This document shows, one piece after another, positions 20,561 through 49,543 of a stretch of 64,000 nt of DNA; position 1 is the stretch's first letter; the number at the start of each line of letters is the position of its first letter. The DNA is from Paragonimus westermani (lineage: Eukaryota > Platyhelminthes > Trematoda > Plagiorchiida > Troglotrematidae). The DNA is taken from contig QNGE01001681.1 of the NCBI GenBank assembly GCA_008508345.1, positions 64,691 to 128,690 on the forward strand, given 5' to 3'. The translations under genes were made by a program, and so were the position numbers. Under the pieces are notes generated by a model. The model did no database searches. It saw only the letters and a list, made by a program, of their open reading frames with translations, and was not told where the DNA came from.

Positions 20561-20675
20561 ACGACTGTTTTGTGTGGTTTCTTCCTCCACATATAGCCAT
20601 TGTTGTCTGGAAACCCATAGATAGGCTGACGATTGACACTTCAAGTATTTTGCTTGGCCAAGTTGTTCGCAAAAT
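20561..20675 (-). CDS. RPTP exon: D2 middle strands
   Basis: A 115-bp exon, phase 2 to 0. The acceptor tttcttcttgcaag has a clear pyrimidine tract; the donor CGT/GTTGAC is weak. It completes Gln from the previous exon and encodes FCEQLGQAKYLKCQ, SAYLWVSRQQ and WLYVEEETTQNSR. This resembles LxExGxxKCxxYWP followed by YGxIxVxxxS of PTP domains; the KC pair is kept and WP is lost. It follows the 22308-22470 exon in phase and precedes 20151-20207 in phase. The reading frame stays open past the donor to 20516, so the exon could be longer. Confidence 0.57.
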
Positions 20676-22307
20676 CTTGCAAGAAGAAATATTGTTCCTG
20701 AAATTAAGCAGACGCCCGAGAGGTTCTTAGAAATTTGAATCAATTTATTTATATAAATAAGTAAATTTTCGGACGTTAAATTGGTTTGTGGTCAGAGTCA
20801 GCATCATAAAAGGGGGTGTGTTTCTTCTGGTACAGTGATTAAATAATAGAAGCTGGTAGTCGAGCTAATGGCATTTTGAAGCACTTACCATTTTACGTTG
20901 TGTGAATACATATGGCTCTCGTGATACGACTGTTCGAAATCGGAATTCTGTATCACTCATTTTTCGTTCGTCGAACAGAATGACAGTGGTTTGATTCTGT
21001 GCCAAGTCTTAGATATCAAATCTGTGCCATCCTGTCATTCAGAGGCTGGACGGTATAATCAGTTGCTGAGGTGGCTCTTTTTACCACAGTTACTTGTAAT
21101 CCACAATCTGTGGACCTTACTGAAATTATTAGAGACAACTTGATGTAAATGTGACTAAGCGTGTTCAGCAGAATTTTCAGAGAGTCCATCTTCTTCAAAA
21201 GCCTATAGTTTCTTTAGCACCGCTATTTATTAATGAAATGACAATGAATTGTTCCAGTTAACAAACGCCAAACCCCAAAGACGTTTTCATAATTAGAGTA
21301 CGTTTGATATTCCTGAACACAGACTGATTGTTTTTCAAACTTCATTGACTAATAAAGAGCCGAAAATGGAAAAACTGGTCGAATCCTTATTGAAGCGGAA
21401 TGTCAGCAAAAGAAATTTACAAAACCAATGCCATCAGCTCTTACAGCATTCACGTGTAGCTTCTAGACAAGCTAACTTATGTGCAGTTTTAGCCACACCT
21501 ATCCCTGGAATCGCAAACAGTGCAGACTCTACGAGAGACATTCAAAATGTCAAAATGTTTTCACTATTAAACCAAAATCCATAAAACTAGCCAAAACGTG
21601 ACTCACTCGGGAACCCAACTGGAAAAATTGGTTCGGGAAAGCTTATTTTGTAAGTTTAGGCTACCACTTCTAGGTCACGGAGGTTTGGTGCATGTCTTCC
21701 AAATCATCACTACCGTTATAGTTTGCCCAATAGCAGATGCAAGAGAAGTCAATGAATGATGTTTTCAATTAACAGGAGCATTCTATGCGCTTACCAACCT
21801 TTCGCTAAATTTTCAAGGGTAATTTGCAAAACCATTAAGTAAAAGGCTGCGAGTTAAATTTCGATGAGAATAAACACTTATAAAGATCAGTTTTTGTTGT
21901 TGCGTTAAGTTTGTAATCTCCCGGGCTTTCTCTGATGGGTTGAACGACCTCTACTGTTCTCATTAATCGTTTTTAAAATGGCTTATATATTTTGTGTCGA
22001 AACGTTTGTATTGGTTGAGAATGCAAACCGATTAGGCTGTGTGATTGAACCGGGAGTAGATGCTGCCCAGTGTACGTTGAGCTGCATATCGTGGTTCGTG
22101 AACATGCAGGTGACATTTGATTTCTTTCGTAAACTGGGTAAGACTGAAACAACTCGGTGGCACTGAACTGCTAATGATTAAAGTGTGTTAGCCGAAACAA
22201 TGAGTAAATGTTTTAAATAGCCGTACTAGGGCTATTCTCTGCATACAGAATATGAACAAATATAAATATGGTACCCAATCTTATCTTAACATTCATTTTT
22301 TTCTAAC
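20676..22307. other. RPTP intron in D2; one unsupported plus-strand frame
   Basis: Intronic on the minus strand. A plus-strand frame at 21366-21584 starts MEKLVESLLKRN in good start context (gaaaATGG) and has a helical, charged composition. It is short and has no recognised family, so it is not called as a gene. Confidence 0.4.
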
Positions 22308-23722: not shown

Positions 23723-23861
23723 TGGAGATTGAATCATTCCTGGTCGACATCGACGGAGTTGCAGGATAACGCCTGGAAGATCAATTATTTTGCCTTTCTT
23801 CTCTAGATGGCGTCGAAGAATATCAGCTGTTATAAACGTTCCGGACCGTCCGATTCCCGCT
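23723..23861 (-). CDS. RPTP exon: D1 active-site P-loop and Q-loop
   Basis: A 139-bp exon, phase 2 to 0, with acceptor ttcattccaag and donor CCA/GTGAGT. It encodes AGIGRSGTFITADILRRH, a helix, and LQLRRCRPGMIQSP. Joined to the previous exon the P-loop is HC-K-AGIGRSG: the Cys-x5-Arg core is intact. The Gln of MIQS corresponds to the Q-loop glutamine (Gln262 in PTP1B) that activates water. The catalytic triad Asp-Cys-Arg and the Q-loop Gln are therefore all there, and D1 is predicted to be active. The expected next piece (EQYxFxY helix) was not found with matching phase. Confidence 0.95.
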
Positions 23862-24138
23862 CTTGGAATGAAAAACATAAGGATTCTTTATTTTTTGTCT
23901 ATCGGGACCGTGATGAGAAGTTACCAACGAAGAGTTAGGAGTTACACGCAGTCTCAGAATATTTTCAATACAAACCGACTTATCCAAAAATAAATTTGCG
24001 TGGTATCAGACAAGGCCTTTCAATTTTAGCAGACTCGATAACTGTGTACGCTTGTTGCTTCTAGTAACATTCTTTACAGTCATCAGTGTAGATCTCTGAA
24101 TTAATGTGATATTTCGATAATGCTTTTTACCCACTCAC

Positions 24139-24299
24139 TTGCAGTGAACAAGTGTAGGACTTTCTTTGTTTGAAGCGGATTTTAATTCCTTATATTTGTT
24201 TAACATGACGCTGAACTCTTCCATGTTCGGCACACCTCGATCGGGCCAGTTAGCAAATGCCAACTGCCGAACGTGCTGTTTTCTTGTTCCACGACCATC
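24139..24299 (-). CDS. RPTP exon: D1 WPD loop up to the catalytic Cys
   Basis: A 161-bp exon, phase 0 to 2, with acceptor tttcttgcag and donor GCAA/GTGAGT. It encodes DGRGTRKQHVRQ, then LAFANWPDRGVPN, an amphipathic helix, and ESPTLVHC. These match RxVxQFxFxxWPDxGVP and PxLVHC of classical PTPs. The WPD general-acid Asp and the catalytic Cys are both present. The exon stops two bases into the codon after Cys; with the next exon that codon becomes AAA (Lys), where classical PTPs have Ser. No other GT in the vicinity gives an open frame, so Lys is the simplest reading. Confidence 0.94.
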
Positions 24300-26190
24300 C
24301 TGCAAGAAATCAGGTCAAAAATGTAAACTTATCCGCAACTTGGCTTTAGAACAATTAAGCAAAATTACTAACGCAGCAGGATAGATCCACTGAAGAAATC
24401 GTCGTAAGGATTCCAACCAATAAAGATTTGTTGGAGAGTAATAAACGAAACCCAGTCTCTCATCGTGACGGTTGAGATGACTCATTATTAGAAAAGCAAA
24501 ATCGCAGGAAGCCAACTATTCGCACAACTGAAAAATTCATGTAGTGAAATAAACATGTGGTTTGAGGTCAACTGGCAGAAAACAGTTGAGCTGAATTAAA
24601 GATAATTAAACGATTAGGAAGATGGTAATTTTGGGCCTCACATGCGTGAACTAGAAAAGTCAGTACAGTCCGCGACTACTTATCATACACTAATAAAATA
24701 CTCAGCACTTTTCCTAGGCCACCTTTGTGACTCTTTCTTAAAACAAGTTATGCCAGTTTTAATTGTATGGAATATGCCCAGGGGTGAAAATGAACAGGAT
24801 AGATAGCAATGTCTAAAAGATTATACCAGTCGCTGCTTAGATGATGACAGTTGTGAAGCTTTTTTACCAACCCTTTGAAAATGAAAACAGTTCTTTAGTT
24901 GATATAACACGTAGTATTTCGCTTACTAGTTGTACAGTGTCAGTTATAATTCCGCTTGGTTTCAGCTAGGTTTACTGCGATAAATACATGGGCCAGAGAC
25001 GATACTAAGTGAAGAAAATTCACGAAAGCCGAGGAGATCATCGTACTACCTTCGGAAAAATATCGATTCATGTGCACACTTAACGTGGCTTTCAATCCTG
25101 GGTCTTTCAAGTTATTATCGTCCACGCTGCTTAAATTGTATGTCATATAGAAAGTTATTAATTCTTAATGGTGAATCATCCTAGGAATTACGCGCGAAAA
25201 AGTGTCCTGACACCGATTATTTGCTGGTCAAGTAACTATCCTGAATTTCCCAATTATTCAGTTTCGCTACTCGCCAAATGGTGCTCCTGTATATTCGTCC
25301 ATCAACGAAATTAGTGAGAAGCCAGAATGACTGCAAACAGTTTGCAACACAGCTTCAATAACGGACGTCCAGTTTGATTTTGGTTCAAGTCAGCGCGTAA
25401 AACAATAGCTGAATTGTGCTCTAACCTGTGATGGGAGTTTTTCGAACGGGCCAAGACCTCGCGAAGGTTGTAAGCCTTTCTCTTTTAGTTGGTGGGATCT
25501 TGTTTAATACACAGTGTACGATACTCTCTAGCAGATCAGCTTCCTTTACCGTTTGAAAGTAAAACCAATGACTCTTCAATCAGTACCAAACTCCGTACGA
25601 TAGAAAGCACATTTTTAATCAATACCACAATCCGCATCAACAGTACATTTATAAATTCCAAATCATGTGCCTCATTTGGTTTGAGCCAAACCTCATCAGG
25701 TCTACACCTACTCCGTGCACGATAAAATACCGTTCGTCATATGCAGGTTGGGAATTCCTGTTTGTCCATTTTACTTGCAACTTCATCGAACCCGATTGGT
25801 ACAGTTTACGATCATTCATACGATCCGGCCAGTAGCACGCGCAGGTGGGCGTAACATCTTCCGTCAGTCTACAGTCGAAACAGCAATTCAGGCAGTTGCA
25901 TTAATATCACTTTAACTACGTCTGGTAATTGTTAAACGCATTATACCAGAATGGAGGGACCAGTGAATTAAAGATTTGTTTCAGTGCCTGGCTTGACGTT
26001 TAAAAGATACACATACACCACGATGACGATAACTTAAACTCATGGCTCTGGTATCATCTTTTATTTACAGCTTTTCAGTAGGTCGCAGCTTTAAAACGAC
26101 AGTAATCTGGACTAGCATGAAGCGATCCTGTCACCCACCATATTATTGGACTCATATTAAGCAAAATCGGACTATTCAACTGCACAATAA
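24300..26190. other. RPTP intron, no coding feature recognised
   Basis: Sequence between the WPD exon and the end of the Ty3/gypsy element. Short frames only on both strands. Confidence 0.5.
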
Positions 26191-26229
26191 CATTACACTT
26201 CGTGTATGAAACTCAGATAGGTAGCTAAA

Positions 26230-26860
26230 GTGGGGTACTCCACTGTAAACGTGTATAATGGCGGCTTCTTCGTTGTAAGTAGCTTTGGGCCAATGGAATA
26301 AGCGATAGCGTTTCCTCGCAGCATCCTCCTTTCATCGGGAGCCACGTCCTGATTGTGCGATTGTTTTTTCCAACCATTCTGTTTGGTTGGGCATACCATG
26401 AAGTTGTGCGAATTTTCTTAACTAATCAGCGCTTCAAACAGCTCCTAAATCTCTCACTTTCGAAACAGGGGCCTTGACCGGTCAATGCGCATCGTGGTAA
26501 TCTGTGATTTGCAGCGATGTGTTCCACCACCATCCTGCATACGACGTTTGCATACCATTTGGGGGTACTGCCATCCATGATCCACCTTGTGAAATGTCCA
26601 GTCATGGCTACGATATACCGGTTGCTGGAAAGAAGCCTATCACAACCACCGGCCATAATTCTCCAATTTTGCTAATCTCGACTGGTGTTACGGGATACTG
26701 ACTGGGGTGGTTGGTGCTCTTCAGCAGCTGACATTGCTAACACGCCTGCGCACAAGTGTTCGCGTCATTCTACCGGTACGCCCTTCGCTTCAGCATGTCA
26801 CAAGTTCGATGACACCCCGCATGAGCCAGCTGTTCACATTCCTTCATAAATGTCGCTCTC
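26230..26860 (-). pseudogene. Ty3/gypsy integrase remnant
   Basis: In order on the minus strand: LAHAGCHRTCDMLKRRAYR (zinc-binding H-H region), a stop, NRYIVAMTGHFTRW (generic NRYILVxxDxFTKW), CALTGQGPCFES (generic HTDQGxxFES, with the catalytic Asp changed to Gly), then MPNQTEWLEKTIAQ (generic HPQxNGxVERxNRTL). Loss of the DDE aspartate and several stops mean no activity. Confidence 0.78.
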
Positions 26861-27679
26861 ATTTCCCCTGATGTAACTGGCACGTTTCTTCCCTCCTGCA
26901 GTTGGTGTACTAAAATTCCGGCACTATTCGTCTACAAGTGTGGCCAGTGCATCTTGAGAGCTTTCACTTCTGTAGTCTCCTCGTCTACTGGCGGTTGTCT
27001 TGTCGACAAGTGTTGGTAAATCACCACCCGGATCGCCGTATTCATCCGTTGTGCTGCTTGTAACTTCTCGGGCTGGTTCTCGACTTTAGTACTGCTAAAT
27101 CTGGTAACGTCTTCGTGGACTCAATCGGTATGTTGTTTTCGGGAAAGCAAATCGGGAACACAGTTCTCCTCCCCAGCTACACGGCGAATCGTGAAGTCGT
27201 ACTCATATAGTCGTCGCACCAAACCAGCCAGCTTTCCTCCGGGGTCCTTCGCTGAGTCAATCCACTCCAACTATTTGTGTTCGGTCTCAACACGAAAACG
27301 TCGGTCGAGTAAGTACGGCTTTACAAGATCGCCTGTTAGAAATGTCAAGTGCGCCAAAAGCTGTCCAATTTACCCATAATGAACATTTTTTGTTGTTGTA
27401 AATTTGAATTTCTCTTTTCCGTGCCATTATTGCGCCATCCTTTTCAATCTTTGCGCTGGTTAGCATACTAGACGCTAATTCACTGATTTATGACCTAGGA
27501 CGGTTCCCATGCGCTTCAATGAACAGTATTCATTAGGTCGCTTGACGAGCTGTAAATACGCAAGAGCTGCGCCTGTAATTTATCTTCGGACTGAGAAGGT
27601 AAAAGCTCTATTTCTGGAGACCGGTGTTTTTCCTTCATAGTCAGCTTGGGTATCAGCTCTTCGTGCTTACAACAGCGCG

Positions 27680-27880
27680 TACAGTAGTAGTTCATCGTAA
27701 AGAACGTTGCAACTCAGTTGTACTCGCTTGGTCGTTCCGCAATATAACAGCGCCAAACTCACCTTCTCCGTCCTTCAGTAATTTCGTGCAGCAGGACCTA
27801 GTACCACACTGGTGTATTTCACAACAACGCCTCCCTGCTTCAGTACCGCTCCGATTCCTATATTAGTCGAATCCGTTGTG
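27680..27880 (-). pseudogene. Ty3/gypsy RNase H remnant
   Basis: The minus strand reads NIGIGAVLKQGGVVVKYTSVV followed by LGPAARNY and a stop. It matches DAxxxGxGAVLxQ and the SxxLxxxExNY block of gypsy RNase H. The leading catalytic Asp position is altered. It continues the pol order from the reverse transcriptase. Confidence 0.7.
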
Positions 27881-27919
27881 AGAATGGAACTCTGTCCAGC
27901 CACTGTTAATTTCAGTGTC

Positions 27920-28480
27920 AGCTATCTCTACCCCATCAATTGATGAACCTCAACAAGCCCTTGGTTGACTATCTCTGACCATCGAAACCGCCAATATTCC
28001 TTCAGAATTTCGTCTAATGAGCTCGCAGGACCATGGAGTTTCTCGAAGACACGACTGTAGAACCCAACGCGACCGAGAGACTGCCGTAGCGTTCTCTTTG
28101 ATGTTGGCACTTAAATAAACTCTATCTTCAGCAGTATCTCGGGCGCTGCTTTCTCTCCATTGTGAACCTTGTCCTTTATCAGACCGATTGCTTGATTGGA
28201 ACCTGTGAATATCCGGACCATAAGTTCAACATTGTAAATACCCTGGCGTTCTGTAGCCTATCGAAAACCTCCGCCACCGCTGGGACTGCTGCGACTTTAT
28301 TGACCGTACTCCCTTTGACCCGCCTGAAATCGATACAAAACAAAATTTGCCAGTAGGCTTCTTCACCAACAAGATGGGAGAACTGAACAGCCTATCGACC
28401 CCCTCGATGACTTCTTCGTTCAACATGACCTTCACTAATCGTGCAGCAGATGTTTCCGAACTCTTAAGGAGCAAATTGTT
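27920..28480 (-). pseudogene. Ty3/gypsy reverse transcriptase remnant
   Basis: Two minus frames are recognisable. The first (28226-28474) has EVIEGVDRLFSSPILLVKKP, matching GVIxPSxSPxxSPVVLVKKxxG at the start of gypsy RT. The second (27928-28110) has LRQSLGRVGFYSRVFEKLHG and FRWSEI, matching the LGLxxYYRRFI and FxW connection block. The central palm with its YxDD motif is missing or frameshifted between them. Confidence 0.8.
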
Positions 28481-28859
28481 GAAATCACTTTAGCTCCATG
28501 GGGATTTATTGTTCAATCCAGTCACAATAGCTGCAGGAGTTGTGATGTGTAGCAAACAATTTTCAAAATTTGCTTGTTTCTTTAATTGGCAGCTGGTTAT
28601 CTCATGTTGATATAGTTCTGTGTACGTTCATTCCAATTTGTCCGAGCAGTGGTCTGTGCTTTGTCGCTAGTGAAACAGTGCTATATTGCGTCACAAGTTC
28701 ATTGTATTCCAAATGGAGAATGGCTTCATAACGGTCTAGTATGGTTTCACGTGTTTTGGCTGAGTGTCGAAAGGCTTTTTGACTACACGGTCGCCGATTT
28801 CGACATCTTATTTTGTCAGACCATTACCTTTGACAGTAAATCCACTTAGTGTTCAAACG

Positions 28860-29035
28860 ACCACCACACGGCTAGACAGTCTGCTTGATTTTAGCCAAAC
28901 CAATGAAACCGCCGCCCCAGCGTCATTCAAACAGCAATTCAAGCTACCATTGATTTCTAACCTATCCGGAACTGTAATCTTATCAATAGCACCCATTGCT
29001 GAACCTCCCTTTGTGAACAAATTCTGTCAGCGAAA
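28860..29035 (-). pseudogene. Ty3/gypsy aspartic protease remnant, DAGA
   Basis: The minus strand reads RLEINGSLNCCLNDAGAAVSL. The active-site signature D-T/S-G-A is present as D-A-G-A at about 28913-28924, so the catalytic Thr/Ser is replaced by Ala. LSGFTVKGNGLT after a stop matches the following strand block. The protease would have cut the Gag-Pol polyprotein. Confidence 0.6.
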
Positions 29036-29039
29036 TGTC

Positions 29040-29320
29040 TAATTGGGGGCATCTCTTTGCCCAGTCGGCAAAATCTTCGCCAGTGTTCACACATTCTGCG
29101 TGTGCAGCGGTCGTCGCTATGATTTACTCTCTTCTACTTCTTTGTATTTGAGGCTGTCACTTGTTGAACCAATTTTTCAACTGCACTTCGAAGGTCGCTC
29201 AGTTCATTTGGTTCATTTGCCTTCAACTCGTTGGCCACTGGGAAGCTGTCCGCTAGTAATTGTCAGGCCGCATCAGCTAATTACTGAAACGCCATCGGAT
29301 GTGCGATGACATCAATCTTT
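29040..29320 (-). pseudogene. Ty3/gypsy gag, C-terminal part with knuckle remnant
   Basis: After the insertion the minus strand resumes with DVIAHPMAFQ, a stop, LADAA and then NELSDLRSAVEKLVQQVTAS. That is the DPxxFxxxLxxLADxA and VExLxxQV tail of Gag. A broken Cys-His knuckle-like segment (CEHWRRFCRLG) follows. Stops interrupt the frame at least twice. Confidence 0.6.
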
Positions 29321-29324
29321 AGCT

Positions 29325-29985
29325 AATCCGGGATTGCTTGTGGTGTTTCCTCCAGCAACTGAACAATCAGCATCCGTTTTTCTAAAGCGCGGTCCAGCCG
29401 TGTCATTGTGGTGGATTGTCAGGTCGGAGGTGCGAGTTTTCGAACGCTCAGCCGAGTACCTCAACGCGTGGGAGGTAAATTCGAAAACCTGCCGCGATCG
29501 GATCAACGACAACGTGCGCGACCGGATGAGTCATCGCTCGACTGGATCGGACCAACGGGCGAGGCAGGGCAGGCGAAATACGACAGACGGCCAGATCGGA
29601 GGCGTGGTTTTTCCAACATTTAGAGGAACATCTCGACACGATGTTGGAATACGGTCAAGGCCAACATTGGGTGGATGGCGGACAGCACGAGCAGCCGGAC
29701 GAGCCATCGCGCAACGGAATCGGACAAACAGACGAGGAATGGCAAGCGAAAAACCCTCCGATAGAAGGCACCGGTCACGCACGTAAACCGGTTAGAAGTG
29801 CACACGACGTGTGAACGGAAACCGGGGGGTGCTGTGGGTTGGAATTATGACTCATGAACGAGAGAGCGCGCGTTGCATGTGACTGGCGATTTGGACAATA
29901 AAGATCGTGCTTTATTGGACGCCTTCTCTCTACATCATGACTATCAACAAAGCTACCCACAGTGATATATCGTAAACGGTCTAAG
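29325..29985. mobile_element. GC-rich insertion in the gypsy gag, possibly a solo LTR
   Basis: About 660 bp separate ARL from the next Gag block and do not look like Gag. The segment is visibly richer in GC than the flanks. It contains a 173-bp imperfect tandem duplication (copies starting near 29522 and 29695), a 9-bp inverted repeat TTCCAACAT/ATGTTGGAA (29611-29649) and a palindrome holding AATAAA on both strands (29896-29917). An inner part could be bounded TGT...ACA (29810-29935 or a longer version), as for an LTR. No target-site duplication was recognised, so the class is open. Confidence 0.5.
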
Positions 29986-29987
29986 CC

Positions 29988-30261
29988 GGGCGCCGTTGAG
30001 CCGCCGCACCACCTCATGAAAGTCAGCGGAGCTGCTGAATCCGGCGACCAAAGCCTCGTTCACGGTGGCCCACTCCAGTTTCACAGGGTCCCTCCTCAGC
30101 ACATCAGACACTGCTTCCACCTTGCTTCTCAATAGCATCCGCATAGTCGCCAGCTCCGCTCCGTCGGCCTGGACTCCCACCACTACCACCATGTCCTCGC
30201 GAACCTCCGAGAAAATCCGAACCTCTCCAATTTTGGGAGGCTGCGGCCACGGAATCTTCAT
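29988..30261 (-). pseudogene. Ty3/gypsy gag, N-terminal part
   Basis: Open for about 90 codons. The run KLEWATVNEALVAGFS and ADFHEVVRRLNGARL matches the capsid-like region of flatworm gypsy Gag (WxxVKxxLxxxFS ... RLxxARL). The frame leaves the family pattern directly after ARL, where the GC-rich insertion begins. Gag would form the particle that packages the element RNA. Confidence 0.65.
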
Positions 30262-30299
30262 CCTTTAATCTTGACCTTGTTTCCAAATGCTGTGAGCCA

Positions 30300-31008
30300 A
30301 GAACGTCAACGGCGCATGCATTGTTTATTCGGGAAACCAATGGATGGATTATGCACTTCAACACAACAACAAACAAGCACTCATTTATCTACAACACTTG
30401 TCCCAGAAGGTAACGGTTGCAACGGTTGTCAGTGCTCCGTTCCTGTAAGTACCGAGAACCACTCCTTGCCAGGAAGCACTCTAGTTTGTCTTTTTTGTCT
30501 TTTTCCCTAGGTGGCCTTAAAGTCCAAATTCATGCTCCTGTCGCCGTGATGAAAAGTAGTGGTGTGAGCAATATAGTGCCATTGCTCTTCCTCATTGAAG
30601 TAGTATTCCTGAAACAAAAGTGAACTCACCATATATCACAATCTGTGGAAGATTTAAGTAATCTCAGACACCAGGCACATAAGTACCTATCAGAGAACGA
30701 TGACTCCCCCGGAGTCGCTTGAAAAAGCCGTTTCATTCAAATCCGTGAAAAATTAGGAATGACACTAATGGATGTCACAAAAAAATAATATTCCCTCAAA
30801 CCAAAAAGCCTGAGTAACCACGCTTAGTTTGCAACCATATAAAAAATAACACCACATGCCTAAAGAATGTAGCCCTATGAGTTCTGCAGTCATTTTTAAC
30901 ATCATTGCTGCGTAACGCGGGAATTTCCGATCCATCGACAATGCGAACCAGAGAACGCAAAGAACTTTGTTTATAACGTGTCCCAAATCGTTATCTTATT
31001 GTTGGTAT
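30300..31008. other. RPTP intron; possible 5' flank of the gypsy element
   Basis: The 5' LTR of the gypsy element should fall here on the minus strand, but I could not pair it with a copy near 26.2 kb. No gene is recognised. Confidence 0.35.
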
Positions 31009-31059
31009 CTAGATGTAGTCAGATATGGTTGGAGAGGTTATCTGACTGGAGTTTCTGAC

Positions 31060-31186
31060 GATCACAGTTTGTGCACAAGCTGCTACAGACCGAGTGGTGA
31101 CACTAATCAACGAAAAACGGCGATCATCTTCTGCCTGAATGTTTATCAGATTGACTAACCGAGCTGCTGGAAGAACGGTTGTGGAA
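31060..31186 (-). CDS. Possible RPTP exon: D1 middle strands (uncertain borders)
   Basis: This lies inside an open frame of 121 codons (31009-31374), the longest non-transposon frame among the introns. The stretch RRFSLISVTTRSVAAC resembles the strand block YGxIxVxxxS of PTP domains, and QTVIVRN resembles the following YxVRxF. A 127-bp exon with acceptor ttgctaag and donor ATC/GTCAGA would link 32662 (phase 2) to 24299 (phase 0). The expected KCxxYWP motif is not present in this segment; an FWP occurs just upstream in the same frame, so the exon may begin earlier or be two exons. Position, strand and phase support it; motif match is weak. Confidence 0.4.
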
Positions 31187-32661
31187 CTTAGCAACAAACT
31201 GATAGGCCAAAAGAGCAAAAACTTCCTCCACAAAATGGCGGTCATGAGTACTGTTTCTCTTCCATAAGTGTTGTTTTCCAACAATCTGAGAGTGCTAGCT
31301 ACCGCCATGACTACTGCTGTTCTGGTCTGCTTGGTTCGGTATTCCAGCAACTGGCGCAAGCTATCGTCTAACAAATCACAATAAGGTGTTATTCATCGTA
31401 ATAATTGAAAAAATTAAACGGATGAACCAAATACAAATACATTATTCGTTTCGTGTCAAGGTTGCCGGTGCGCTAAGTTTATTAGCTGGTATTGTAAACT
31501 GAAATGGCTTGATGACCATGCTGTTGCGCAACACCCCGTTGCGATCTACATATCTCAACGTCGTTTCGACCAGGAACTGAATAATATATGTCCAAGTCCA
31601 GTAGCTTGAAGTCTTTCTAATGCATCTCAACAATCTCACAAGTTAGAGCGTGTTCTTCAATTGTATGCCGTAGTCAGCCCGCTGTTTTTCCCGGTTTTTC
31701 AAAATGTGTTATTAAATCTACAATTTATTCATAACGTTGCAGAAACTATGATAAATTCATCTTTTTTCATCATTATGTGACGTATGGTGTACGCGTGAAT
31801 ATACTGCAGGAGAATTTGGTCGAAATCACAGTTAGTAACTTTTCGGAAGCATTTATACAGTCTTAACTTGACTGATGTGCAAGCATAGATTTGAAGGCAG
31901 GTGTTGTTTCTCTTTTTCTGTCAATCCTTAGCCTTGAAGGAATCAATTCTACTAAACCCGGATAAACTACAAAGCGAAAATTTCGATTATATTAAAACTT
32001 TGTTCATATACTCTGTTAACTAGATTACAACAGGTAGGTCCTAGTACTTACCAGCGTCCTGATGAACAACAATTTTGACCCACTCAGACATCAATAGCAT
32101 CATGTTTGTTAGAAGTCAGTCCCACCACCCGTGATCAAGACAGACAATTTGCCCACTTATTCACAAGAGTACTGGAGAACTGTGTCACCCTCCTACGACT
32201 ATTACCCTCTTCATTTCAGGGCCGACCTTACTCAGCTAGTGAAGGTTGGTCCTTGACTTAGTAGGTGCTTTCTAGTGTGAGCCAACTATATCTGATTGAT
32301 CAGGTTTGATCTCTGAGAAATAATCTCACCCCACTGAATAGATTTGTTTGGACCGAGGCATAACGCTTGCTGTTTCAATCAACATAATGCAGTCAGTGTA
32401 GGTTAAGATTTGCTTAAGTTATATAATGGCACACTTAAAGTAATGACCAATTTTGAGTTTCTTTGAATCAGTTCACAATTCCTATCGGACGGGAATCGTC
32501 CGGAGCGTAAGTTAAATTCGTTTACCATTCACGCAAGACTTCTATTAAGAACTTCCCTGGAGAACGTCCCGACGCCGACAAATAACAAATATCCACAAGT
32601 TTATATCAGACTAGCACAATTTGGGATGAACTCAGGTTGAGCGCAACAAAATTTTGGTAAC

Positions 32662-32852
32662 CTGTTCAACATAACAATGACGTCGACGTTGTTCTCAACA
32701 ATCATGCGCCAGAAATCCCCACAGGTGTTTTCTAAAGGAGCCTGTGTGCAAATATATTCCATCTGTCCAAAATCCATTTCCACAGGACCCTTGCTGGGCA
32801 TCGCGATGCGGTAAATAGGAGAAGCGTTGACGTAATCTTGAAGTTCATTCGG
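32662..32852 (-). CDS. RPTP exon: D1 core with DYVNAS, TQAP and DFWRM motifs
   Basis: A 191-bp exon, phase 0 to 2. It encodes the PTP signature block in order: LQDYVNASPI (generic DYINASxI), YICTQAPL (generic YIATQGPL), GDFWRMIVE (generic DFWRMVWE) and DVIVMLN (generic VIVMLT). This is the most recognisable PTP exon here apart from the active site. Differences from consensus are TQGP to TQAP and a six-to-eight residue insertion before MEYICT. The donor is AACAG/GTTACC, weaker than most in this gene; the acceptor is aaactag. The downstream partner is not certain (see 31060-31186). Confidence 0.93.
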
Positions 32853-33662
32853 CTAGTTTGAAAGAAGAATTTAAAATTCTTATTAATATCTTTGTATACA
32901 TTAAAACGAAAGCCAGTAAAGCTTTAGTCAGTTTAGGCAATACCTGTCGAGCCAATCCAATAATTTTTTTCATAGGCCTGAGCTTAGAACAGTGCTTCTG
33001 AATCTATTATATTCCTGAGAAACATGCGTAGTCCTGTGAAACTTCGTGATAGCCATTTAAAAGATAACTCAGTACATCTTATGGCAGAAATAAGCTTATC
33101 AGTGTTATTGACAAAATATTGGCCATAATTTTCAAGAAATACAAAGGAACAGACCGCATCAAATTGTCTGTTCCACCTTTGCTGAAATTTCGTTCTTTTT
33201 GAAAAGGCATTAATGTGTCATAATTACGTTTTGACATCCCGATTTGACTAACTGACCGATAGAATATAAGGTAATGGCGCATAGCCATATAACAGAATGG
33301 TAGAATATAAGTGTATAACACGGATGTTGATGGAGTCCAACGTGACCTGCTTGCGAAATCCTATCGAGGCAGTCGATTCCCTGATGCGTCCCATGTGAAG
33401 AATTAGGACTAGTGTGGGAGTTGTCTCCGGTGTGGTTCCGTAGTCATGCCGTCCGAGTGTTGTTTTGCCAAGCAGCTGAAGTACAGATCTTTCGCAATTT
33501 GGCTACCTTGCAGGCACAATATTACATCGGCGGCGTACATGTAACATTCGCTGATAACAATGAACGCCATTTGTTACTTTCACGTTACTCATTGCTGACT
33601 AGCGTAGTCACTAATCCTATCAGTGCTTCAATCTACTGAAAAACCAACTTGCGGAAACTCAC

Positions 33663-33694
33663 CTGCTTTTTTAACACTATTCGACGAATGTCAT
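33663..33694 (-). CDS. RPTP D1 micro-exon, 32 nt (YDIRRIVL)
   Basis: A micro-exon of 32 nt, phase 1 to 0, with acceptor ctttgactag and a consensus donor CAG/GTGAGT. It completes Tyr and encodes DIRRIVLKKQ, matching the conserved YDxSRVxL strand that follows the KNRY loop. Both borders fit the codon phases of the neighbouring exons (34371-34479 and 32662-32852). Too short for gene finders to call alone; the motif, the splice sites and the double phase match together make it convincing. Confidence 0.85.
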
Positions 33695-34370
33695 CTAGTC
33701 AAAGACAAAAAATAACAGGAGACTATGAGTCAGACACGACGATGTGCATAAAGTGTAAATTAAGTAAACTAAATGAACCTCATGGGAAAGTAACGGATCA
33801 ATCGAGTGTTAATTATACAACGTTGTCCCGTATACAAACTGACCAGTAAAGTAGCAATACCGCTTGTTATTTGTGCGTTTGTTCTCACAGTCACGCTAGC
33901 GTGAACAAAACATCACTCAGATCAACTACTTTGACTGGAGGTTTTCGATTACCATTTTTTTCTACGTCAAAGCCATCAGATCTGTGCACTGTTTCACTGA
34001 TTTTGTAAGGAACGGGAAGTCTGGAGAATGAAAAGAGTCTAATCTTCTTAGACGGACAGTAGAACAGTCAAGGTTACAGCTCTTTATGACTTGGTATGGA
34101 TGAAATATTAACCGAAAAATCATTCTTTACTTCACCAGTTATTATAAATCGCTGAATACTGAAAGTCCTTTGCGACAAGCACACAAAGAAACTTATCAGG
34201 TATCTGTCAAGGATTGGAGTTAATTCGTTATCTGAAAATTTCCAAATAGTGCACTGGTTTTAAAACCAAAGTTTTGTCGACGGAAAAATGACCATATGCA
34301 ATAACTCATCACGAAGTCTTTCAAAGTTGTGATACATAGGCAACCAGATAAATTTAGCCTTGAAACTTAC

Positions 34371-34479
34371 AAGGAACAGCGTTAACACAACGATTTTTCG
34401 TCAGATTCACCAACTCGAAGCAAACTGTGCACTTTAGTCCTTCGGCTTCTTTATTCTTCTCGCTGACATTGTGCAAGTT
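34371..34479 (-). CDS. RPTP exon: D1 phosphotyrosine-recognition loop, KNRC variant
   Basis: A 109-bp exon, phase 0 to 1, with acceptor tttgccgcag and donor CCTT/GTAAGT. It ends LTKNRCVNAVP followed by a split Tyr codon, so with the next exon it reads KNRCVNAVPYD. In classical PTPs this motif is KNRYxNVLPYD, and its Tyr (Tyr46 in PTP1B) lines the phosphotyrosine pocket. Here that Tyr is Cys (codon TGT). The flanking Lys-Asn-Arg, Asn, Pro and Asp are all kept, so the alignment is secure. The split final codon T|AT is completed by the micro-exon at 33694. Confidence 0.85.
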
Positions 34480-37860: not shown

Positions 37861-37992
37861 CTTAAACTCCTCCCTGAACATAATGTTGTTTTCAGCAGAG
37901 CCAACTGAGTAAAGGGCATCATAGTTGGAAATGTTTGCTTGCCCCCGGCTGATTAGTTTGTGATGGTGAATAACAATAGAGAACCGAATGAA
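37861..37992 (-). CDS. RPTP exon: N-terminal edge of catalytic domain D1 (FREEFK)
   Basis: A 132-bp exon of 44 codons, phase 0 to 0. The acceptor tttcctccag and donor AAG/GTAAGT are both near consensus. It ends ENNIMFREEFK, which corresponds to the F-x-x-EF helix that opens classical PTP domains (compare the generic FxxEYExL). The preceding part (about 30 residues, including NISNYDALYSVG) is the linker from the juxtamembrane exon. The next exon starts NLHNVSEKN, giving the expected EFxxL run across the junction. The fit to the PTP fold is good but the sequence is divergent. Confidence 0.78.
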
Positions 37993-49413: not shown

Positions 49414-49543
49414 CACGATTCTGCTTTTCGACGTCTCGCTTTCTTGAACCGTTTTGCCAAAATCACAATCACCAGCAAAAAGATGGAAATGGCAGCAACC
49501 AACAATCCAGTTAGCAGCCATTGAGCCCATACAGGAAATGACC
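49414..49543 (-). CDS. RPTP exon: transmembrane segment and basic stop-transfer
   Basis: A 130-bp exon, phase 1 to phase 2. It encodes SFPVWAQ, a hydrophobic helix of about 22 residues (starting WLLTGLLVAA, ending VIVILA) and then a strongly basic stop-transfer (KRFKKARRRK). That layout puts the N-terminus outside and the C-terminus in the cytosol. The acceptor is ...ttctctaaag and the donor GTG/GTATGT. The phase-1 entry is typical of exons following extracellular modules such as fibronectin III. The last codon is split TG|G and is completed by the juxtamembrane exon at 43170. On its own this could be the membrane exon of any type I receptor; the phase match to PTP exons on the same strand is what ties it to the phosphatase. 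Confidence 0.75.

What the first reader, a model, noticed from the sequence alone, without database searches (positions are those of the whole stretch)
23723..34479. D1 phosphatase pocket has two rare substitutions: KNRY to KNRC and HCS to HCK
D1 keeps WPD, Cys-x5-Arg and the Q-loop Gln, so it should be catalytic. Yet the Tyr that stacks on phosphotyrosine (Tyr46 of PTP1B) is Cys, and the residue after the nucleophile is Lys instead of Ser. HCKAG is the P-loop style of PTEN and Cdc14, and Lys there favours other or more acidic substrates. A receptor PTP with a PTEN-like P-loop and no pocket Tyr may act on something other than ordinary phosphotyrosine. The Lys depends on the join AA|A across an intron.
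Basis: partly seen in the sequence, partly recalled or inferred. Interest (0 to 1): 0.85.

Follow-up and report, generated by a model that had tools for sequence, protein, structure and literature searches.

The report
Fluke receptor phosphatase with altered pocket
A lung-fluke receptor enzyme that should remove phosphate from tyrosine has lost two touching residues of its substrate pocket; the change is real and the gene looks maintained, but this does not by itself make it a lipid phosphatase.

Summary
The window is Paragonimus westermani DNA. The minus-strand gene encodes a complete PTP domain (PF00102, 1-231 of 234, 214.9 bits) with Cys for PTP1B Tyr46 (KNRC), Lys after the nucleophile (HCKAG), WPD, C-x5-R and the Q-loop Gln. 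Of 35 in-frame, stop-free joins tried across the intron, one keeps C-x5-R and it gives Lys; none gives HCS. Lys recurs in 2 of 2 orthologue models that span the join and in the paralogue; Fasciola and Echinostoma have Arg, one schistosome group Thr, others Ser. The Cys could not be checked in orthologues; the paralogue has Tyr. The exons look constrained. No D2 was found: the gene stops after one domain, downstream of a transmembrane exon (R3-like). The two changed residues are hydrogen-bond partners in PTP1B, so they are one altered contact. The PTEN comparison is half right: PTEN has a second P-loop Lys where this protein has Ile. Most likely it is a competent receptor PTP with a loosened, more basic pocket and weak phosphotyrosine-peptide activity; a pseudophosphatase is the main rival. 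New variant of a known kind.

The parts
49414..49543 (-). Transmembrane exon: SFPVWAQWLLTGLLVAAISIFLLVIVILAKRFKKARRRKAES, a hydrophobic run followed by a basic stop-transfer stretch
   Evidence: Hydropathy scan; sequence with ctctaaag acceptor and gtatgt donor. Its splicing to the PTP exons is inferred, not shown
37861..37948 (-). Juxtamembrane exon (RGQANISNYDALYSVGSAENNIMFREEFK)
   Evidence: tblastn of P0002 to the window; edges; matching exon in paralogue contig C348
34371..34479 (-). Exon with the pTyr-loop motif KNRC; Cys codon 34389-34387 at the PTP1B Tyr46 position
   Evidence: alignment
33663..33694 (-). Exon Y|DIRRIVLKKQ; the preceding join restores PYD
32662..32852 (-). Exon PNELQDYVNAS..YICTQAP..DFWRMIVENNVDVIVMLNR
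   Evidence: Pfam hit
25869..32661 (-). 6.8 kb intron; contains retroelement-like reading frames by eye; the two pieces given to Pfam had no match
   Evidence: negative Pfam scan
25712..25868 (-). Exon LTEDVTPTCACYWP..YDERYFIVHG; Thr at what I align as the PTP1B Lys120 position
   Evidence: tblastn of P0001
24139..24299 (-). Exon with WPDRGVP and TLVHC, ending AA|gtgagt (first two bases of the Lys codon)
23723..23861 (-). Exon starting with A (third base of the Lys codon), then AGIGRSG..RRCRPGMIQSP, with the Q-loop Gln
20641..20697 (-). Last coding exon EQYFFLQDFANNLAKQNT and stop codon TGA (20643-20641); ends the protein after one PTP domain
   Evidence: tblastn of P0002 and P0003

Best explanation
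The gene encodes a single-pass receptor-type tyrosine phosphatase with one cytoplasmic PTP domain (R3-like), from a lineage that in the proteins sampled here is seen only in flukes. In this copy the Tyr46-Ser216 hydrogen bond of PTP1B, between the phosphotyrosine loop and the P-loop, is replaced by Cys and Lys, and Lys120 is also lost (Thr). Cys, Arg, Asp and Gln of the chemistry remain. I think it is still a Cys-dependent phosphatase, but with a shallower, more flexible and more basic pocket: slow or selective on phosphotyrosine peptides, able to turn over small aryl phosphates, perhaps preferring acidic contexts. Shown: sequence, splice join by open frame, single domain, relatives' residues, signs of constraint. 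Inferred: activity and specificity.
For: Complete PTP domain, 214.9 bits; one splice join keeps C-x5-R and it gives Lys. Lys in the two orthologue models that span the join, P. heterotremus PHET_00588 and P. skrjabini miyazakii EG68_02405, and in paralogue C348, AA|A; a second P. westermani model, P879_01934, ends at that exon with AA plus one intron base, which agrees but does not prove Lys. WPD and Cys are kept in all three models, the P-loop Arg in the two that reach it. Constraint: dN 0.31 against dS 2.68 (saturated) between window and C348 coding sequences; against P879_01934, 5 of 90 exon residues differ but 10 of 29 in a read-through intron piece, Fisher p 2.4e-4. Tyr46-Ser216 hydrogen bond: passage in PMC5773487. 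Loss of the pocket Tyr with activity on DiFMUP but not phosphopeptides: PTPD2, passages in PMC2638020. Fold: AlphaFold2 model of paralogue P0002, pLDDT 90.6; the top-ranked solved matches are PTP beta (PTPRB; that this is an R3 receptor is from PMC5336234) at about 29% identity.
Against: Catalytic positions drift across this fluke lineage (WLD, WFD, WEN, WPE; Q-loop Gln to E, D or R, and H in the related gene C1317), and the two orthologue models that reach the Q loop have Arg instead of Gln, although their last exons look mispredicted. The Cys cannot be confirmed in any orthologue. PTPN14 (PTPD2) is called inactive even on generic substrates in the introduction of PMC7320164 and a pseudophosphatase in PMC9464862, against the DiFMUP result in PMC2638020. 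No expression or enzyme data. The dS value is saturated.
Confidence: 0.45

Rival explanations
1. Pseudophosphatase or substrate trap: the domain folds and binds phosphoproteins or partners but has no useful activity, like PTPRU.
For: PTPRU keeps the catalytic Cys but has GSRQ for KNRY, WPE and a P-loop Thr, and is inactive (passages in PMC7320164). PTPN14, without the usual KNRY loop, is classed as a pseudophosphatase in PMC9464862 (passages). Members of the fluke lineage have lost the WPD Asp (WEN in one schistosome group, WPE in Opisthorchis) and often the Q-loop Gln. The window copy has lost Tyr46, Ser216 and Lys120.
Against: Window copy keeps WPD, Cys, Arg and Gln together; orthologue models keep WPD and Cys, with Arg where covered. 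PTPD2 was active on DiFMUP in PMC2638020, so loss of the Tyr need not abolish chemistry.
Confidence: 0.27
2. Ordinary phosphotyrosine phosphatase: the substitutions are tolerated and specificity is normal.
For: All chemistry residues present. From recall, not fetched: a bacterial effector PTP of the classical fold (YopH, named only) carries a basic residue at this place and is a fast phosphotyrosine enzyme, so the basic residue alone need not change specificity. Ser, Thr, Arg and Lys alternate at this site in flukes, as if tolerated.
Against: Position 46 is aromatic in 62 of 62 scoreable other domain segments with intact Cys, Arg and Asp, and its loss is given as the likely reason for the inactivity of PTPD2 on phosphopeptides.
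Confidence: 0.2
3. Phosphoinositide phosphatase.
For: First P-loop Lys shared with PTEN (Lys125 contacts substrate); an R3 receptor, PTPRQ, acts on phosphoinositides. The domain also matches PTP-SAK (PF22784, a DSP-PTPase family) at 27.3 bits, just over its 27-bit cut-off, but that family says nothing of lipids.
Against: PTEN Lys128 is Ile here; PTPRQ specificity is ascribed to WPE and this protein has WPD; PTPD2 did not act on the lipids and inositol phosphates tried; PF00102 dominates at E 1.6e-63, while DSPc and PTPlike_phytase stay below their cut-offs.
Confidence: 0.06
4. Assembly error or decaying gene: the odd residues are noise.
For: The Cys is seen in one assembly only; the available annotation of the locus (DEA37_0013388, P0007) is a mis-joined 149-residue model.
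Against: All seven PTP exons are open and the six introns are GT-AG; Lys recurs in orthologue models and in the paralogue; exon constraint.
Confidence: 0.02

Closest known systems
R3 receptor PTPs (PTPRB, PTPRJ, PTPRO, PTPRH)
   Same: One cytoplasmic PTP domain; a transmembrane exon lies upstream; classical PTP fold; PTP beta structures are the top fold matches to the paralogue model
   Different: KNRC and HCK instead of KNRY and HCS; fibronectin ectodomain not identified here
PTPRU D1
   Same: Receptor PTP domain with altered KNRY and P-loop but catalytic Cys kept (passages)
   Different: PTPRU also has WPE and a wholly different loop (GSRQ), and two domains; this protein has WPD and one domain found
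PTPD2 / PTPN14
   Same: Lacks the pocket Tyr (passages)
   Different: Non-receptor; its P-loop was not compared here; reports on its activity conflict
PTEN
   Same: Lys directly after the nucleophilic Cys (passage)
   Different: Second P-loop Lys absent; the sequence matches the classical PTP family
Fluke relatives: PTP models of Paragonimus, Fasciola, Echinostoma, schistosomes and Opisthorchis
   Same: One clade with the window domain, ultrafast bootstrap 100, 15 fluke rows of 27
   Different: Arg, Thr or Ser after Cys outside Paragonimus; Tyr, Phe or Ser at position 46

Membership tests
Classical PTP (PF00102) | Full-length match to the PTP domain | tested here: met
   1-231 of 234, 214.9 bits, E 1.6e-63
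Classical PTP (PF00102) | H-C-x5-R with WPD Asp and Q-loop Gln | tested here: met
   HCKAGIGR, WPDRGVP, MIQSP|EQY
Classical PTP (PF00102) | Aromatic residue closing the pTyr pocket (KNRY) | tested here: not met
   KNRC; PMC7320164 calls KNRY typical and less well conserved than C-x5-R, so this puts usual phosphotyrosine recognition in doubt, not the fold membership
R3 single-domain receptor PTP | Single PTP domain at the C terminus | tested here: met
   Stop codon in exon 20697-20641 after the last helix; only three PF00102 matches at E <= 0.001 on contig C1681, all in this gene
R3 single-domain receptor PTP | Transmembrane segment upstream | tested here: inconclusive
   Strong hydrophobic exon with stop-transfer at 49543-49414; splicing to the PTP exons not shown
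R3 single-domain receptor PTP | Fibronectin type III ectodomain | tested here: inconclusive
   No match over a Pfam cut-off in 8 selected upstream frames (one sub-cut-off hit, PF20235 at E 0.012); no convincing tblastn hit with schistosome, Opisthorchis, Fasciola or fish N-terminal parts (best E 0.076, inside an intron). Most upstream frames were not scanned
Tandem-domain receptor PTP (D1-D2) | Second PTP domain downstream | tested here: not met
PTEN-type lipid phosphatase | P-loop C-K-A-G-K-G-R with two substrate-contacting Lys | tested here: not met
   C-K-A-G-I-G-R; PTEN residues from a passage in PMC4743836
PTPRQ-type lipid-active receptor PTP | WPE in place of WPD | tested here: not met
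   WPDRGVP; feature from passages in PMC5336234
Pseudophosphatase | No catalytic activity | not testable with these tools
   Needs an enzyme assay

The most novel reading that the evidence does not exclude
In this fluke lineage the Tyr46-Ser216 hydrogen bond has been taken apart and rebuilt: a basic residue next to the nucleophile takes over charge lost at Lys120, and the new Cys at the pocket mouth gives the receptor a second thiol that can meet the catalytic Cys when the loops open, so that the receptor is a redox-gated phosphatase with its own substrate range. Against the charge-swap half: the P. heterotremus orthologue model has Lys at both places.
Probability: 0.07. Interest if true: 0.7.

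Novelty: new variant of a known kind. Interest (0 to 1): 0.42.

Why it matters
In the non-fluke domains sampled here, Ser after the catalytic Cys (115 of 118) and an aromatic pocket residue (62 of 62) hardly vary. A natural series inside one fluke lineage (Ser, Thr, Arg, Lys against Tyr, Phe, Ser, Cys) is a ready-made set for testing what the contact between the phosphotyrosine loop and the P-loop does for specificity and for oxidation of the enzyme. It also warns that annotated RPTPs in flukes should not be assumed to be ordinary phosphotyrosine phosphatases.

Tried and rejected
Splice artefact: rejected, because no in-frame, stop-free join tried restores HCS and relatives' models show K or R at the same site. 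D2 domain: looked for and not found. KCxxYWP exon: a first regular-expression scan missed it; orthologue P0001 located it at 25868-25712. Orthologue check of the Cys: a search with the N-terminal exons (6 hits of 314 candidates, lengths limited by the tool) returned one Paragonimus protein, P0001, which lacks that exon. Charge swap between Lys120 and the P-loop: 13 of 16 fluke relatives scored lack Lys120, but the orthologue P0001 has Lys at both places, so it is not a clean swap. Papers: 0 with all of 'receptor protein tyrosine phosphatase', 'trematode' and 'Fasciola'; 5 with 'Paragonimus' and 'protein tyrosine phosphatase', none about this enzyme by title or abstract start; 1,674 with at least 2 of 'Schistosoma', 'receptor-type tyrosine-protein phosphatase' and 'flatworm', 10 listed, one of them (PMC8400842, tapeworm secretome) holding the phosphatase term 10 times and not read. 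The papers used were seen as passages, not in full. Ectodomain: not resolved. YN00 failed. The tree has 27 rows: 15 from the fluke lineage, and 12 segments of 10 outgroup proteins chosen by hand with segments of 200 or fewer aligned columns dropped; left out were P0031, P0081, P0110, P0009, C1317, other own-genome PTPs, Echinostoma P0140 (a different PTP type), tapeworm P0069, and the remaining retrieved proteins. P0146-P0149 came late and were in the input but not in the count.
Full report
WHAT IS THERE. The window is 64691-128690 of contig C1681 (151,785 bases) in an 823 Mb assembly. A public protein from a contig of that length, DEA37_0013388 of Paragonimus westermani, matches the window, so the window is lung-fluke DNA. 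The gene lies on the minus strand. With orthologue and paralogue proteins as guides I placed seven PTP exons: 34479-34371, 33694-33663, 32852-32662, 25868-25712, 24299-24139, 23861-23723 and 20697-20641. The six introns between them are GT-AG and the frame stays open from the first exon to the stop codon. The 281-residue product matches PF00102 over 1-231 of 234 positions at 214.9 bits.

THE TWO RESIDUES. The pTyr loop reads TKNRCVNAVPYD and the P-loop VHCKAGIGRSG. Lys is coded AA|A across a phase-2 intron. Trying 24 donors and 11 acceptors around it gave 35 in-frame, stop-free combinations; only one keeps C-x5-R and it gives Lys; none gives HCS. A related gene in the same genome (contig C1317) has the intron in the same place with AG|C, Ser; paralogue C348 has AA|A, Lys. 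A plausible path is Ser AG|C to Arg AG|A to Lys AA|A (inference). In the 36 loci held from this genome, a motif scan found 7 unsplit P-loops and 7 of 7 are HCS; 36 of the 66 exon matches were not given loci there.

HOW RARE. In an HMM alignment of all proteins then held plus the window and C348 (272 domain segments), I set aside 21 sequences (flukes, a tapeworm, the window and C348; 23 segments) and looked at the 118 other segments with Cys, Arg and Asp intact. Position 216 is Ser in 115, Gly 1, Ile 1, Arg 1; the Arg is in what is by position a second domain. Position 46 could be scored in 62: Tyr 54, Phe 5, Trp 3. By a regular expression, among 191 P-loop segments in 145 proteins, Lys (3) and Arg (4) occur only in flukes; the alignment, which is more tolerant, also finds Arg in 6 other segments, 4 in what are by position second domains and 2 that break off after the residue. 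These are the proteins most like the query, not a census.

RELATIVES. Orthologues: P. heterotremus PHET_00588 and P. skrjabini miyazakii EG68_02405 (both HCKTG), and a second P. westermani model, P879_01934, which ends at HCK by reading one intron base. Paralogues: C348 (KNVY, WLD, HCKAG, Gln to Glu), P. westermani P879_07559 (WLD, HCKAG, Glu) and P. heterotremus PHET_00586 (KNIY, WFD, HCRAG, Glu). Fasciola and Echinostoma: HCR, with Tyr in Fasciola and the site not covered in Echinostoma; one schistosome group: HCT with Phe; a second schistosome group: HCS, Tyr, WEN; Opisthorchis: HCSNG, Ser, WPE. A maximum-likelihood tree (LG+G4, 27 rows, 15 of them fluke) puts the fluke rows in one clade with ultrafast bootstrap 100, and the window with the two other species' orthologues at 100. 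Results against a simple story: the two orthologue models that reach the Q loop have Arg instead of Gln; none reaches the KNRC exon, so the Cys is known from this one assembly only; and P. heterotremus PHET_00588 keeps Lys120 as well as the P-loop Lys.

IS IT FUNCTIONAL. dN 0.31 and dS 2.68 (saturated) between window and C348 coding sequences; against P879_01934, 5 of 90 exon residues differ but 10 of 29 in a stretch of intron that its model reads through (Fisher p 2.4e-4). Both point to constraint on the exons. They do not show activity.

ARCHITECTURE. After the last helix comes a stop codon at 20643-20641; the PF00102 matches on this contig at E <= 0.001 are three exons of this gene. No D2 was found. 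A transmembrane exon with a basic stop-transfer stretch lies at 49543-49414. I did not find fibronectin domains in the frames tried. The predicted fold of paralogue P0002 (23-row alignment, pLDDT 90.6) has PTP beta structures at the top of its solved matches. So it works like, and is probably a divergent member of, the single-domain R3 receptor type.

MECHANISM. In PTP1B Tyr46 is hydrogen-bonded to Ser216, and this bond is absent in the oxidised form (passage in PMC5773487). The finding's two substitutions are the two ends of that bond. Lys120, as I align it, is also gone (Thr); 13 of 16 fluke relatives scored lack it too. Literature comparators, seen as passages: PTPRU, altered pTyr loop, inactive (PMC7320164); PTPD2, no pocket Tyr, active on DiFMUP, not on phosphopeptides nor on the phospholipids and inositol phosphates tried (PMC2638020), though two other papers class it as inactive; PTPRQ, lipid-active, explained by WPE (PMC5336234); PTEN, two Lys in the P-loop (PMC4743836). 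From these the likeliest outcome is a competent but weakly phosphotyrosine-directed enzyme (0.45), then a pseudophosphatase (0.27), then an ordinary PTP (0.20), with a lipid phosphatase unlikely (0.06). All of this step is inference.

VERDICT. The claim of a PTEN-like receptor acting on other substrates is only partly supported. New variant of a known kind; interest 0.42.

Noticed in passing
window 28400-26100, minus strand: Pieces that look by eye like a Gypsy-type retroelement (reverse transcriptase- and integrase-like stretches) sit in the 6.8 kb intron between exons 32852-32662 and 25868-25712; one 70-residue piece had no Pfam match.
   Followed up: partly
window 55551-55105, minus strand: A 149-residue open frame that looks by eye like a Penelope-type reverse transcriptase fragment; no Pfam match.
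   Followed up: partly
window 43190-43047, 35863-35795 and 32852-32604: The public model DEA37_0013388 joins these pieces into 149 residues and misses most of the PTP domain, so the locus is misannotated.
   Followed up: yes
L031-L032 (contig C348): Paralogue in the same genome with WLD instead of WPD and Glu in the Q loop, open across its exons; a pseudophosphatase candidate.
   Followed up: partly
P0068, P0081, P0085, P0091: A schistosome PTP group with WEN in place of WPD and Glu in the Q loop, otherwise HCSAG; likely inactive or trapping.
   Followed up: partly
L033 (contig C1317): Related PTP with HCSAG (AG|C) but His in the Q loop (MVHKP).
   Followed up: partly
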